From the NCBI GenBank assembly GCA_001800315.1, contig MGVE01000011.1, forward strand, positions 68,851-132,850: a stretch of 64,000 nucleotides of DNA, in the 5' to 3' direction. Position 1 is the stretch's first letter. Every line of letters starts with the position of its first letter. The notes under the pieces are model-generated. The model ran no database searches. It worked only from the letters and a program-made list of their open reading frames with translations, and had not been told where the DNA came from. The stretch comes from Elusimicrobia bacterium RIFOXYA2_FULL_47_53 (GTDB taxonomy: Bacteria > Elusimicrobiota > Endomicrobiia > Endomicrobiales > XYA2-FULL-47-53). The position numbers and the translations under genes are program-made. Of the stretch, positions 59,598 through 64,000 are shown in pieces.

Positions 59598-60226
59598 ACT
59601 ATAAAACCCTGATTGTGGGCCCTATTGCGACCAACTGCTATATAGTCTATGACAATTCCCGTGATTCAGCCGTTGTAATAGACCCGGGAGCCGAAGCCGA
59701 AAGAATTATAGCCGCTCTTGAGGAGAACAAGCTTAAGTTAAAGGCGATAATCAATACCCACGGGCACGGCGACCATATCAAGGAAAATAAAACCCTGAAG
59801 CAAAAATACAACTGCCCCATTTATATTCATAAAGATGACAGCGATTTCTTGGACAACCCGGATCTGAACGGCTCAATACTAATAGGCAATCCGTTCACTT
59901 CGCCTAAAGCGGACCATTTTCTAAAAGACGGCGAGGTGCTGGATATAGACGGTATGAGGTTTTCGGTGTTTCATACCCCGGGCCATACGCCGGGCGGAGT
60001 CTGCCTTAAAATTGACGGCCTGCTTTTCACGGGAGACACTCTTTTTTGCGGAACCGTAGGCAGATGCGACCTGCCCGGTGGCGACGGGGAAAAGCTTAAG
60101 AAAAGCCTGAAAATATTTGACTCATTCCCGGGCGAGACAATAATTCTGCCGGGGCATGAAAATAAATGCGTTCTCTCCATAGACAGAAACCATAACCCTT
60201 TCCTGAAAGCGGATTTTAACCAATGA
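59588..60226 (+). CDS. MBL-fold metallohydrolase (glyoxalase II-like)
   Basis: A 212-residue metallo-beta-lactamase-fold hydrolase. The metal-binding motif is NTHGHGDHIKENK, with the later ligands in FHTPGHTPGGVCL, LFTGDTLFCGTVGRCDLPGG and LPGHENKC. It is of the short YcbL/glyoxalase II-like group, possibly acting on thioesters; the substrate is not known. The start is GTG at 59588, or GTG at 59594; both lie inside the end of pgpA. It overlaps xerD by 4 bases. Confidence 0.88.
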   Translation: MAVNYKTLIVGPIATNCYIVYDNSRDSAVVIDPGAEAERIIAALEENKLKLKAIINTHGHGDHIKENKTLKQKYNCPIYIHKDDSDFLDNPDLNGSILIGNPFTSPKADHFLKDGEVLDIDGMRFSVFHTPGHTPGGVCLKIDGLLFTGDTLFCGTVGRCDLPGGDGEKLKKSLKIFDSFPGETIILPGHENKCVLSIDRNHNPFLKADFNQ

Positions 60227-61107
60227 AGACTCATGTTGAGAGTTTTACCAGCTACCTTTCTGCTGAAAAAGGACTTGCCAAAAACACCATTCTTGCCTAT
60301 AGATCCGACCTTAAGATTTATTCCGAATACCTCGCGAAAAACAAACTGGATTTTTCTAAAGCCGCCCATCAGGAATTGACCGAGTTTCTCTGGCAGCAGA
60401 AACAGTCGGGCCATAAGCCCAGAAGCCTTTACAGAATGATAGAAACCTTAAGGCAGTTTTACAGGTTCCTGGTTTCCGAGAATATTGTCTCCAGAGACCC
60501 CGCCGTTAACCTTATTCCGCCCAGGGTTTCAGCTAAACTGCCGAACATGCTTTCAATACGCGAGATAGAGAGCCTGATGGCCGCCGCCGGCGGAAGCAGT
60601 GAAAGAGAAGCGCGCAACAGGGCTATGCTTGAACTGCTGTATTCGTCCGGGCTGCGGGTGTCCGAGCTGGTTGGCATCAAAATTGACAATGTGGATTTAA
60701 ATCTGGGGCTTGTCAGGGTGGTAGGCAAGGGCAACAAGGAAAGGATTGTCCCGATAAATAAGAACTGCAGGCGCTACATACAAAAATATCTGCCGCTGAG
60801 GAATTCAAACAAAAGAGCGCTCCCGGGCGAAAACTCGCTGTTTCTTACCAAACTCGGAAGAAAAATGTCCCGCGTAGAGTTCTGGCGCCAGCTTAAAAAC
60901 TACGCCGTCAAAGCCGGGATAAAAAGAGATATTACTCCCCATGTGCTTAGGCATTCTTTCGCTTCGCACCTGCTTTCCGGCGGGGCAGACCTGCGTTTTG
61001 TTCAGGAGATGCTGGGCCACAGCTCCATATCCACGACCCAGATATACACCCATGTGGATAAAGAGCGCCTCAAAGAGCTGCACAAAAAGTTTCATCCCAG
61101 AGGATAA
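60223..61107 (+). CDS. xerD: Tyrosine recombinase XerC/XerD
   Basis: A site-specific recombinase of 294 residues that resolves chromosome dimers. The N-terminal SAM-like core-binding domain has SYLSAEKGLAKNTILAYRSD. The catalytic residues are in SSGLRVSELVGI (Arg), VVGKGNKERIVPI (Lys), TPHVLRHSFASHLL (His, Arg), LGHSSISTTQIYTHV (His, Tyr). The XerD branch is a little more likely than XerC from general appearance. It is not linked to any mobile element and is the last gene of the operon that begins at ftsK, its activator. Confidence 0.92.
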   Translation: MKTHVESFTSYLSAEKGLAKNTILAYRSDLKIYSEYLAKNKLDFSKAAHQELTEFLWQQKQSGHKPRSLYRMIETLRQFYRFLVSENIVSRDPAVNLIPPRVSAKLPNMLSIREIESLMAAAGGSSEREARNRAMLELLYSSGLRVSELVGIKIDNVDLNLGLVRVVGKGNKERIVPINKNCRRYIQKYLPLRNSNKRALPGENSLFLTKLGRKMSRVEFWRQLKNYAVKAGIKRDITPHVLRHSFASHLLSGGADLRFVQEMLGHSSISTTQIYTHVDKERLKELHKKFHPRG

Positions 61108-61145
61108 AACTCGCTGCGGCAAATCGGATATTGATACTTCTTTAT

Positions 61146-61173
61146 TTGACATTGGGGTGTAATTTGTTATATA
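61146..61173 (+). promoter_or_regulatory. Promoter before the right-hand accessory patch
   Basis: A perfect TTGACA at 61146-61151 and TATATA at 61168-61173 are 16 bases apart, with an extended -10 TG at 61165-61166. The ATG at 61189 is about 9 bases after the expected start. It would drive what is now a frameshifted gene. Confidence 0.7.
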
Positions 61174-61188
61174 AAGAGGGCACAGCAA

Positions 61189-61654
61189 ATGGGGGATAAA
61201 AGCGTGGGGTGCAAGGCGTTGGCAAGTTCCCTTAAGAAACTCAAAGCAATGATTTATCCTGTAAAGCGCGCGAAAAAGCTTTACGGGTTTTTTTTATTTT
61301 TCACGGTTATATTCTTTCAGGTGGTTTTCCCGCAAAGCGGCTTCTCTGTAATTACTGATACCACAAACTATCTTATCATACCTGTCGGCGAAACCTATAC
61401 ATCCAGCTGCCAGAACCTATGGCGACGGTTCGTATGCCGGCGCGAGCTATCCTGTGATAGCGTGGGGCCAGCAGGCGAGCGGCGGCGGGCTTAATTCGGG
61501 AACATGTGATATGCCTATGTCGGTTAATTCCGGTATTTCACTTACAGTCAGCTGTATAGGCGGATATACCGGTTCGGTTTCAGCGTCATTTGGCAACGGG
61601 AAGGGAAAATGGATGGGCAAGGATATGCCTGTTGATTTAGTTTTGAATATTTAG
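61189..61654 (+). pseudogene. Frameshifted remnant of a secreted repeat-body protein
   Basis: The first frame starts at 61189 with a basic stretch and a hydrophobic export-type segment (KKLYGFFLFFTVIFFQVVFP). It then reads ITDTTNYLIIPVGETYTSSC. Near 61414 the homologous frame shifts and continues RTYGDGSYAGASYPVIAWGQ, then SGISLTVSCIGGYTGS, and ends at a TAG at 61652 with VDLVLNI. The second part is about 96 percent identical in DNA to the last 150 bases of the window, where it lies in the open frame of a large gene. I read it as a broken, chimeric relative of that gene and not as two small genes. Confidence 0.65.
61415..61564 (+). repeat. 150-base direct repeat, copy A
   Basis: Matches 63851-64000 base for base without gaps; I count 6 differences in 150. 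The match begins at ACCTAYGGCGAC. Copy B reaches the window edge, so the repeat may be longer. Confidence 0.92.
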
Positions 61655-61848
61655 TATTTTACACATAAGGAAATATTACTTGCCTGGGGGCAGAGAATAA
61701 TCTAAAAAGGAAAGAATCACGGCTTTGATAGATTGTCGTTTCGGTTTAAACTGAAACTGTGTTTTTTCGTGTTTAAATCGGGGAATCAATAAACCAGATT
61801 CTGTTAGACGCAATTGAGTAACATTTTCATTACGAGCGAGGGATAAAC

Positions 61849-62688
61849 ATGAAAGGGAAAACATTGATTACGGCCTTAATTATGACTTTGATGTTCGGCG
61901 GCATAGCGGGCGGCGAAAACACAAATCAGGGTCAACAAAACAAGGAATGGATCTTAGGAATAAAAAAAAGACTTAAAAGCAGCAATGCGGAACAAAGGAA
62001 ATTTCTGATAAAAGAACTGGGCAAAAATACCGAACCTGAAGCGATAAGCACATTGTCAGAAATTATTGTGGATGATGCTGAAGATATCCCAACAAGGCGG
62101 ATTGCTATAGAATCACTTTCAAGAACAGGAGATCCTAAGAAGGTAGTCCCTGTGTTATTGAAGGCATATCAGAATGAAAATTTAAAAGTTGTTTCTGCGT
62201 ATAACTTGAGTAGAATTGGGCAAAGGGGAGCGAGTTTTCAATTCTTAATTCAATATGCTGAAAATGGGCATCCAGAGGTGCTGTTCTATAATGATAAATC
62301 TCAAAAACGCATTTATTTCGATCGCGAAACAGGGAGAAAAATTCTATTAAAACTCATTGATGGAGACAATGACTATATTCGTGCGAAGGCTGCATTGTTT
62401 TTGTCAGAAGATTTTAATGAGGTGAATAAATCTATAAAGACAGCGTTGGATATTGGTAATAACACAAAACTTGAGGGTAATGAAAGAATTTATGCGTTAA
62501 GTTATGTTATTCCTGTACTGGAAAAGGATGCGAGTCAAGATTCAATAGACACTCTAATTATAATTATGAGCAGAGAAAATTCAGAATTACTTACGGGTAG
62601 CGCAGAAAAATCATTAGAAAAACTGAATCAAAATCATCTAATTGGTAAAGATAAGGCTAATAAAATGCAAAAAAAATACCTCAAGTGA
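61849..62688 (+). CDS. Exported HEAT-like repeat protein, function unknown
   Basis: A 279-residue protein with a signal peptide (MKGKTLITALIMTLMFGGIA, cleavage near GGE). Helical repeats of the PBS-lyase HEAT type follow, for example EAISTLSEIIVDDAEDIPTR with RRIAIESLSRTGDP and KVVPVLLKAYQNENLKVVSA. Such repeats bind other proteins. The gene is clearly more AT-rich than the housekeeping genes, as is the first part of the next gene, 7 bases downstream, so the two probably arrived together and are co-transcribed. It could be a partner or immunity protein of that product; nothing in it proves either. Confidence 0.7.
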   Translation: MKGKTLITALIMTLMFGGIAGGENTNQGQQNKEWILGIKKRLKSSNAEQRKFLIKELGKNTEPEAISTLSEIIVDDAEDIPTRRIAIESLSRTGDPKKVVPVLLKAYQNENLKVVSAYNLSRIGQRGASFQFLIQYAENGHPEVLFYNDKSQKRIYFDRETGRKILLKLIDGDNDYIRAKAALFLSEDFNEVNKSIKTALDIGNNTKLEGNERIYALSYVIPVLEKDASQDSIDTLIIIMSRENSELLTGSAEKSLEKLNQNHLIGKDKANKMQKKYLK

Positions 62689-62695
62689 TATGGTA

Positions 62696-64000
62696 ATGAA
62701 AAAATTAAGTATAGCACTATTTGCATTATTTATAAGCTTTCAAGTTAATGCCTTTGATAGGGTAAAAGCAGTTCAATATATCGATCTATGGTGGAACTCT
62801 GACCTTGATAATGATGGTATTCACGAGAATATAAATTACCCGTACGGTCAATACTATGATTCTGGTGGTGATTGTGCTAATTTTGGATCTCAGGTACTAA
62901 TTGCTGGCGGATTGAAATTTGGAACTGAAGGCAGTGGGGCAGGGGGGACAATTACTTTAGCAGAAAATCTAAGAAATTATTTGAAAAGTAAATACCAAAG
63001 CATTGAATCGCCAAATATTTTTTCTGAAATATCCGAGAGCGATATCATTTTTTGGACGAATCATGATTCTTTGCCTGACGCTGATCATACAATGGAAGTT
63101 CGTACTCGAGTGGCTGAACAGGTTGCCACCGCTTCGCACGATAATGACAGAAATGGGTTAAACCTTTCTGGGGACAACCCTTACAATTTTCTTCCTGTTG
63201 GAGCTCAGCTGGCTTTTCTCCATATTTATGATTCACCGGTAGTCAAACAAGTACTAATATCTCAAGTAGAACGGATAAAATATCACGGTTACCTAAAGTC
63301 TTCTGACAATACACTTATTACAGAAGTTTGTGAACCGGTTAATGTTGGAGAAATCACAATAATAATAAAATTTGATTGCCAGATGGAAACAAATATTGGC
63401 GAGTCCGATATTTGTTTTAGCATCAATGATTCAGAAATTGTTCATCGATTTTCTGATATAGTGTGGGAAGATGCTTTTACTTTGAGCGCCAAATATGACA
63501 TTCCAAAAAATATGTATTCTGAGTACGATGGTGAAAATGTAATTAAAATTGTTGCTAAAGGGAATGATCATAGTATGACGGATATAGATTGTAACTTGAC
63601 TGAGTACACCCCTGGGCCAAACACAATGCATAAATTTATCATTGCCACCAAAGACACTGATGATGACGGTGATCCCGACTATTCGGACGCAGATGACGAC
63701 AATGACGGCATACCTGATGAGAAAGACCCGTTTGCCTGGAGCGTTAACGACAGCAATAACAACGGCGTTGACGACGCCATTGATGCCGAGATAGAAAGCA
63801 GGAAGCCGATTTATGTCAGGCTGCGCGGCGGCGGTGTATCATCGTCAAGGACCTACGGCGACAGTTCGTATGCCGGCGCGAGCTATCCTGTGACAGCGTG
63901 GGGCCAGCAGGCGAGCGGCGGCGGGCTTAACTCGGGGACATGTGATATGCCTATGTCGGTTAATTCCGGTATTTCACTTACAGCCAGCTGTATAGGCGGA
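62696..64000 (+). CDS. Secreted amidase_6-type protein fused to a conserved body, 3' end outside window
   Basis: The frame is open from the ATG at 62696 to the window edge, 435 codons. Residues 1-19 are a signal peptide (MKKLSIALFALFISFQVNA). Residues 20-180 look like the amidase_6 (putative amidase) domain: FDRVKAVQYIDLWW, the nucleophile-type C60 in SGGDCANFGSQVLIAGG, SDIIFWTNHDSLPDADHTME with H131, and SHDNDRNGLNL. A beta-rich part follows. Residues about 320-365 are Asp-rich Ca-binding repeats (DTDDDGDPDYSDADDDNDG). Then comes the body YVRLRGGGVSSSRTYGDSSY, shared with the remnant at 61.4 kb. The body is GC-rich and the rest AT-rich, so this looks like a chimera. It may cleave peptidoglycan or peptide amides. 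Confidence 0.72.
   Translation, partial: MKKLSIALFALFISFQVNAFDRVKAVQYIDLWWNSDLDNDGIHENINYPYGQYYDSGGDCANFGSQVLIAGGLKFGTEGSGAGGTITLAENLRNYLKSKYQSIESPNIFSEISESDIIFWTNHDSLPDADHTMEVRTRVAEQVATASHDNDRNGLNLSGDNPYNFLPVGAQLAFLHIYDSPVVKQVLISQVERIKYHGYLKSSDNTLITEVCEPVNVGEITIIIKFDCQMETNIGESDICFSINDSEIVHRFSDIVWEDAFTLSAKYDIPKNMYSEYDGENVIKIVAKGNDHSMTDIDCNLTEYTPGPNTMHKFIIATKDTDDDGDPDYSDADDDNDGIPDEKDPFAWSVNDSNNNGVDDAIDAEIESRKPIYVRLRGGGVSSSRTYGDSSYAGASYPVTAWGQQASGGGLNSGTCDMPMSVNSGISLTASCIGG
63851..64000 (+). repeat. 150-base direct repeat, copy B
   Basis: The second copy of the repeat at 61415-61564. It lies in frame in the amidase_6-type gene and is cut by the window edge. Of the 6 differences from copy A, three are silent. 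Confidence 0.92.

What the first reader, a model, noticed from the sequence alone, without database searches (positions are those of the whole stretch)
61189..64000. Possible N-terminal cassette exchange in a secreted modular protein
The sequence shows two near-identical 150-base body segments (61415-61564 and 63851-64000). The first is attached to a broken export-signal N-terminus. The second is attached to a different, AT-rich N-terminus carrying a signal peptide, an amidase_6-like domain and Ca-binding repeats. Polymorphic toxins are known to swap C-terminal tips; here the variable part would be the N-terminal enzyme domain on a shared body, with the displaced front end left upstream as a pseudogene. 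This is an inference from layout and composition.
Basis: partly seen in the sequence, partly recalled or inferred. Interest (0 to 1): 0.82.

Follow-up and report, generated by a model that had tools for sequence, protein, structure and literature searches.

The report
Swappable front ends on secreted hydrolases
Next to an intact secreted cell-wall-hydrolase gene lies a short leftover copy of part of that gene, and relatives show the same layout, which suggests that these bacteria swap the enzyme end of a surface protein, together with a partner gene, the way other bacteria swap the tail ends of their toxins.

Summary
A 153-bp direct repeat (61412-61564 / 63848-64000, 95.4% identical) is the only one of its kind in the window. 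Copy 1 follows a frame-broken leader. Copy 2 lies in an Amidase_6 gene cut by the contig end.

The leader is the 5' end of a different gene, a glycine-rich secreted protein ('gene 1') that is intact elsewhere in the genome. Relatives carry a cassette: gene 1, a partner, then a wall-peptidase joined to a long body. Partner class follows enzyme class in every classified pair: HEAT with Amidase_6 (12), propeller with M23 (5), NHL propeller with NlpC-like (6). Homologous bodies carry different N-terminal enzymes; a body tree needs 5 enzyme changes where 2 is the minimum. In four other genomes a short stub, 96-99% identical to part of the full gene, lies upstream, next to partners or enzymes only 40-65% identical or to unrelated sequence.

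So N-terminal exchange is well supported for the family. The exchanged unit seems to be partner plus enzyme, a mirror image of CDI/Rhs polymorphic toxins. In the window itself only the scar is visible, and its body is of unidentified type. Toxin/immunity function is inferred, not shown.

The parts
61141..61188 (+). upstream region shared with another gene-1 copy at the right end of contig C16
   Evidence: 155-bp match 61141-61295, 96.8% identical
61189..61411 (+). remnant of gene 1 (glycine-rich secreted protein): signal-peptide leader and first conserved residues; followed by a frame break
   Evidence: 92.2% identical over 218 bp to the intact 1059-aa gene on C9; the first ~107 bp also at the ends of C16 and C17
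61412..61564 (+). body stub: copy 1 of the repeat, out of frame with the leader
   Evidence: 95.4% identical to 63848-64000
61565..61654 (+). continuation of the stub's open frame to its stop; not known whether copy 2 continues the same way
   Evidence: beyond the contig end for copy 2
61849..62688 (+). partner gene: HEAT-repeat protein with signal-peptide-like N-terminus
   Evidence: HEAT_2 6e-13; relatives lie directly before Amidase_6 genes in other genomes
62696..64000 (+). enzyme-plus-body gene (gene 3), cut by the contig end
62756..63169 (+). Amidase_6 domain (papain-like), Cys and His conserved
   Evidence: Pfam PF12671 8.4e-12; alignment
63653..63796 (+). acidic DxDxDG repeats, possibly Ca-binding; similarity to the G339 proteins stops at their start
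   Evidence: sequence; (alignment ends at residue 318)
63848..64000 (+). body: copy 2 of the repeat, residues 385-435 of the enzyme gene

Best explanation
The locus is a scarred example of a three-gene secreted cassette: glycine-rich surface protein (gene 1), partner, then a wall-peptidase domain on a long body. In this family the unit 'partner + N-terminal enzyme' is replaced by homologous recombination in the body-coding DNA. A new unit probably enters by a single crossover, which leaves the old partner and enzyme upstream ending in a short stub of body, and puts the new unit on the full-length body. In the window the displaced unit has since been deleted, fusing the first ~220 bp of gene 1 to the stub out of frame, while HEAT-Amidase_6-body remains intact. 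Shown: the repeat, the identity of the leader, partner/enzyme coupling, enzyme swaps on homologous bodies, and stubs in four other genomes. Inferred: the crossover, the order of events in the window, and that the partner protects the producer (immunity) against a secreted wall hydrolase used on competitors.
For: Leader equals gene 1. The order gene 1 - partner - peptidase recurs in relatives. Amidase_6 has an adjacent HEAT-like gene in 12 of 15 loci, M23 a propeller in 5, NlpC-like an NHL propeller in 6, with no crossing among 23 classified pairs. Body shared with a different enzyme: an Amidase_6 and an M23 protein 39% over 1094 aa after unrelated N-termini; M23 vs NlpC-like 53% over 247 aa. 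Body tree: 5 changes against a minimum of 2. Stubs: G169 355 bp 96.9%, G260 348 bp 97.1%, G339 181 bp 96.1%, G259 156 bp 99.4% plus 860 bp 93%. In G169 the enzyme part is 41% and the partners 50% identical, the stub 99% at protein level. G259 has the same order as the window (gene 1 - stub - partner - enzyme), with the contig ending inside the repeat.
Against: The window's body has no relatives and its gene is incomplete, so no exchange is seen at this locus itself. In G339 the stub lies inside the enzyme's N-terminal part, not the body, and in G260 the displaced enzyme is internally deleted, so boundaries vary. Three of 15 Amidase_6 loci lack a HEAT partner. NlpC-like assignments are weak: sub-cut-off Pfam, or only a Cys motif. 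No toxicity, binding or immunity data; secreted propellers and HEAT proteins could be adaptors or inhibitors of a self-directed enzyme. All loci come from draft genomes.
Confidence: 0.6

Rival explanations
1. Ordinary decay: two neighbouring secreted-protein genes that share a repeated domain lost the stretch between them, leaving a leader-domain pseudogene. No cassette exchange is involved at this locus.
For: The junction is out of frame and gene 1 is destroyed here. Secreted proteins of this genome hold many repeated domains, and several contig ends lie in them.
Against: The same stub-beside-module layout recurs in four other genomes with abrupt identity boundaries. Enzymes change on the body tree.
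Confidence: 0.22
2. The enzyme and partner form a self-directed wall-remodelling or nutrient-acquisition pair (enzyme plus inhibitor or adaptor). Exchange reflects adaptation to substrates, not antagonism.
For: M23, NlpC/P60 and Amidase_6 domains are common in ordinary wall remodelling (general knowledge). The partners are exported HEAT and propeller proteins, and propellers had not been found among immunity proteins in the 2012 survey PMC3482391.
Against: Unit-wise exchange with displaced copies resembles toxin/immunity loci (PMC3150448; PMC3482391).
Confidence: 0.3
3. Simple tandem duplication of the whole enzyme gene followed by deletion.
For: It would also give direct repeats.
Against: In G169 the regions before the stub are 41% identical and the stub 99%; in G259 and the window the sequences before the two copies are unrelated. 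A whole-gene duplication would not give this.
Confidence: 0.07
4. Assembly artefact: the leader or the second repeat copy was misjoined.
For: Contig ends lie in repeats and the window ends inside the repeat.
Against: The copies differ at 7 of 153 sites, no long exact word is shared across the leader-stub junction, and the same layout appears in independent assemblies.
Confidence: 0.05

Closest known systems
CDI (CdiA-CT/CdiI) loci with orphan modules (PMC3150448)
   Same: Variable effector domain on a constant part, adjacent candidate immunity gene, displaced truncated modules that keep a stretch of the constant part, recombination between modules.
   Different: The variable domain is C-terminal and orphans lie downstream in CDI; here it is N-terminal and displaced pieces lie upstream. 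None of the scanned cassette proteins showed a two-partner-secretion domain; the enzymes are wall peptidases.
Polymorphic toxin systems in general (PMC3482391)
   Same: One recombination event could bring in enzyme and partner together; HEAT proteins are a recorded immunity class there.
   Different: That work defines them by C-terminal toxins on a constant 5' body. Here the order is mirrored (partner-enzyme-body) and the partners carry export signals. Beta-propellers had not been found as immunity proteins there.
T6SS amidase effectors with periplasmic immunity (Tae/Tai; from general knowledge, see also PMC9270033)
   Same: Wall-cleaving enzyme paired with a partner expected outside the cytoplasm.
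   Different: Here: signal peptides, very large multidomain proteins with CHU_C/Por-like tails in relatives, no T6SS part seen in the loci read.
Amidase_6 proteins (PF12671)
   Same: The N-terminal domain is a member by score and conserved Cys/His.
   Different: Joined to a long surface-type body and paired with a HEAT gene.

Membership tests
Amidase_6 (PF12671) | score above the curated cut-off | tested here: met
   45.9 bits vs cut-off 23.2
Amidase_6 (PF12671) | conserved Cys and His of the papain-like site | tested here: met
   DCANF and ADH motifs align in all 14 sequences
Polymorphic toxin system | variable domain recombined onto a constant trafficking/body part | tested here: met
   different enzymes on homologous bodies, in relatives
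Polymorphic toxin system | variable toxin at the C-terminus | tested here: not met
   variable enzyme is N-terminal
Polymorphic toxin system | displaced or orphan cassettes beside the full gene | tested here: met
   G169, G339, G260 displaced modules or remnants; G259 and the window stub only
Polymorphic toxin system | adjacent cognate immunity gene | tested here: inconclusive
   strict class coupling of partner and enzyme, but no functional test
Polymorphic toxin system | toxicity neutralised by the partner | not testable with these tools
   needs expression
CDI two-partner secretion | TpsA secretion domain with CdiB partner | tested here: not met
   no such Pfam hit in the cassette proteins scanned
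Rhs | YD/Rhs repeats in the constant part | tested here: not met
   none in the bodies scanned; separate Rhs genes exist in the genome
Type IX-like surface sorting | C-terminal CHU_C/Por_Secre_tail/FlgD_ig-type domain | tested here: inconclusive
   present in several relatives; the window gene is cut before its end

The most novel reading that the evidence does not exclude
A mirror-image polymorphic toxin system: secreted wall hydrolases whose N-terminal enzyme and upstream-encoded exported immunity partner (HEAT, propeller or NHL) are swapped as a unit onto a conserved surface body through short homology stubs, behind a common glycine-rich surface gene.
Probability: 0.45. Interest if true: 0.85.

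Novelty: new variant of a known kind. Interest (0 to 1): 0.7.

Why it matters
Polymorphic toxins are described as varying at their C-terminal tip, with the immunity gene and displaced cassettes downstream. A family that varies at the N-terminus, with partner and displaced modules upstream, would show that the logic of one crossover replacing effector plus immunity works in mirror image. It would name HEAT and propeller proteins as specific partners of three wall-peptidase classes, and give testable enzyme-partner pairs in a poorly studied phylum.

Tried and rejected
Pattern scans for the body or enzyme in genome contigs and viral contigs found no relatives, nor did the cassette body in viral contigs. 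I looked for the continuation of the gene at all contig ends: no end overlaps the window's end; a contig starting with a glycosyltransferase-like ORF and one starting with an Rhs tail were rejected as continuations. I considered that the 107-bp leader repeat is a riboswitch: no Rfam match and its fold is no better than shuffles, though the terminator-like hairpin within it is. I tested whether the window body is the DUF7619 body of relatives: no convincing similarity. AlphaFold2 without an alignment was uninformative for both window proteins (mean pLDDT 30 and 47), so no fold search was run. PDB sequence search found no relative. Literature searches found no description of this layout in the library.

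Full report
Observation. The two segments are real: 146 of 153 bases are identical between 61412-61564 and 63848-64000. It is the only direct repeat of at least 100 bp and 93% identity within 8 kb in the window, and 120 kb of contig-end sequence of the same genome shows none. The genome (2.41 Mb, 20 contigs) holds only these two copies. The window ends exactly at the end of contig C11. Ends of other contigs of this assembly often share exact repeats of 80-100 bp, so the assembly probably stopped in a repeat. Copy 1 differs from the end of copy 2, so a further unassembled copy is possible (inference).

What copy 1 is attached to. The leader at 61190-61407 is 92.2% identical over 218 bp to the start of a 1059-aa glycine-rich secreted protein on contig C9. 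The first ~107 bp also occur at the right ends of C16 and C17, both of which stop at the same poly-T. So the broken front end is the 5' end of another gene, here called gene 1, joined to the body stub in another reading frame.

What copy 2 is attached to. A 279-aa HEAT-repeat protein (61849-62688) lies 7 bp before a gene whose N-terminus is Amidase_6 (8.4e-12), with Cys and His conserved in all 14 homologues aligned. The G339 protein is 43% identical over the first 318 residues, again directly after a HEAT gene that is 38.6% identical to the window's. Similarity stops at the acidic repeats; from there the window has its own body, which has no detectable relative in 340 genomes of the phylum (only chance-level hits).

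The cassette in relatives. Gene 1 (profile A1) occurs in 11 of 328 genomes of the phylum. In relatives it is typically followed by a small exported partner and then a large protein with an N-terminal wall peptidase, DUF7619 and Big_3_5 domains and, in several, a CHU_C/Por/FlgD-type tail. Three enzyme classes were seen: Amidase_6, M23 and NlpC-like. The partner class follows the enzyme class: 12 of 15 Amidase_6 loci have a HEAT-like gene directly upstream (7 clear, 3 by linkage, 2 by weak Pfam scores), all 5 M23 pairs have one propeller family, and all 6 NlpC-like loci have an NHL propeller family. No pair crosses classes. If the 23 pairs were independent, the chance would be about 1.6e-9; they are partly related by descent, so that number overstates the strength of the evidence.

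Exchange of the N-terminus. Bodies are homologous where enzymes are not. An Amidase_6 protein (G172) and an M23 protein (G198) share 39% over 1094 aa after unrelated first 240-270 residues. The M23 protein of the window's own genome (C9) shares 53% over 247 aa with NlpC-like G338, and the G002 Amidase_6 protein shares 61% over its first 95 body residues with G338. A tree of 15 bodies needs 5 enzyme changes where 2 would be the least; a supported clade holds all three classes.

Stubs. In G169 a truncated M23 gene ends in 355 bp that are 96.9% identical to the body of the full M23 gene downstream; at protein level the enzyme parts are 41% identical, the partners 50%, the stub 99%. In G339 a 160-aa enzyme fragment ends in 181 bp at 96.1%. 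In G260 a displaced partner is followed by an internally deleted enzyme start, then a 348-bp body stub at 97.1%, out of frame, much like copy 1. In G259 the order is gene 1 - stub - partner - enzyme, as in the window, with 156 bp at 99.4% and a further 860 bp at 93% on another contig; its contig too ends inside the repeat. In G172 a truncated enzyme shares 173 bp at 89.6% with another contig, and in G068 a 901-bp body copy at 87% lies upstream. Of the five repeats of at least 100 bp and 93% found in 34 cassette loci, four are stub-body pairs.

Mechanism (inference). A single crossover between the body of the resident gene and a short body segment carried by an incoming partner-enzyme unit would leave resident partner-enzyme-stub upstream and put the incoming unit on the full body. 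This predicts what is seen: upstream displaced modules ending in a stub of the constant part. In the window the displaced module is gone and gene 1 is cut to its first ~220 bp, so a later deletion between the gene-1 leader and the stub is the simplest reading.

Function (inference). All parts begin with signal-peptide-like stretches, the enzymes are of wall-cleaving families, and enzyme and partner travel together. By analogy with CDI/Rhs loci (PMC3150448; PMC3482391) the partner may be an immunity protein. This is not shown; an inhibitor or adaptor for a self-directed enzyme is possible.

Limits. The window gene is incomplete. NlpC-like calls are weak; those of G338/G339 rest on a Cys motif. 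In G339 the stub lies before the catalytic Cys, so exchange boundaries differ. All comparisons are among draft genomes.

Noticed in passing
61258-61297: Inside the signal-peptide coding part of the gene-1 leader there is a 10-bp hairpin followed by eight T, like an intrinsic terminator (-14.1 kcal/mol, z -2.55). It is kept in all four own-genome copies. It could be attenuation or a slippery homopolymer.
   Followed up: partly
L068 and L069 (own contigs C7 left end, C10 right end): The genome carries several Rhs/YD-repeat genes in tandem with different C-terminal tips and orphan tip fragments, each near a short secreted gene; contigs break inside the Rhs core.
   Followed up: partly
L127 2120-5038: In G169:C134 a glycine-rich gene-1-like ORF runs in frame into the C-terminus of ribosomal protein S8; assembly chimera or real insertion.
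   Followed up: no
L137 and L142: XerC/D-type recombinase genes lie upstream of HEAT-Amidase_6 pairs in G334:C130 and G246:C166. The XerC/D gene at 60223-61107 in the window is one of three strong PF00589 matches in the genome and may be the housekeeping one.
   Followed up: partly
L125 1196-5149: In G334:C75 a second enzyme type (NCHSYAW motif) with its own small partner lies before the HEAT-Amidase_6 pair and shares a 75%-identical 1.1-kb body stretch with it: a possible fourth enzyme class.
   Followed up: no
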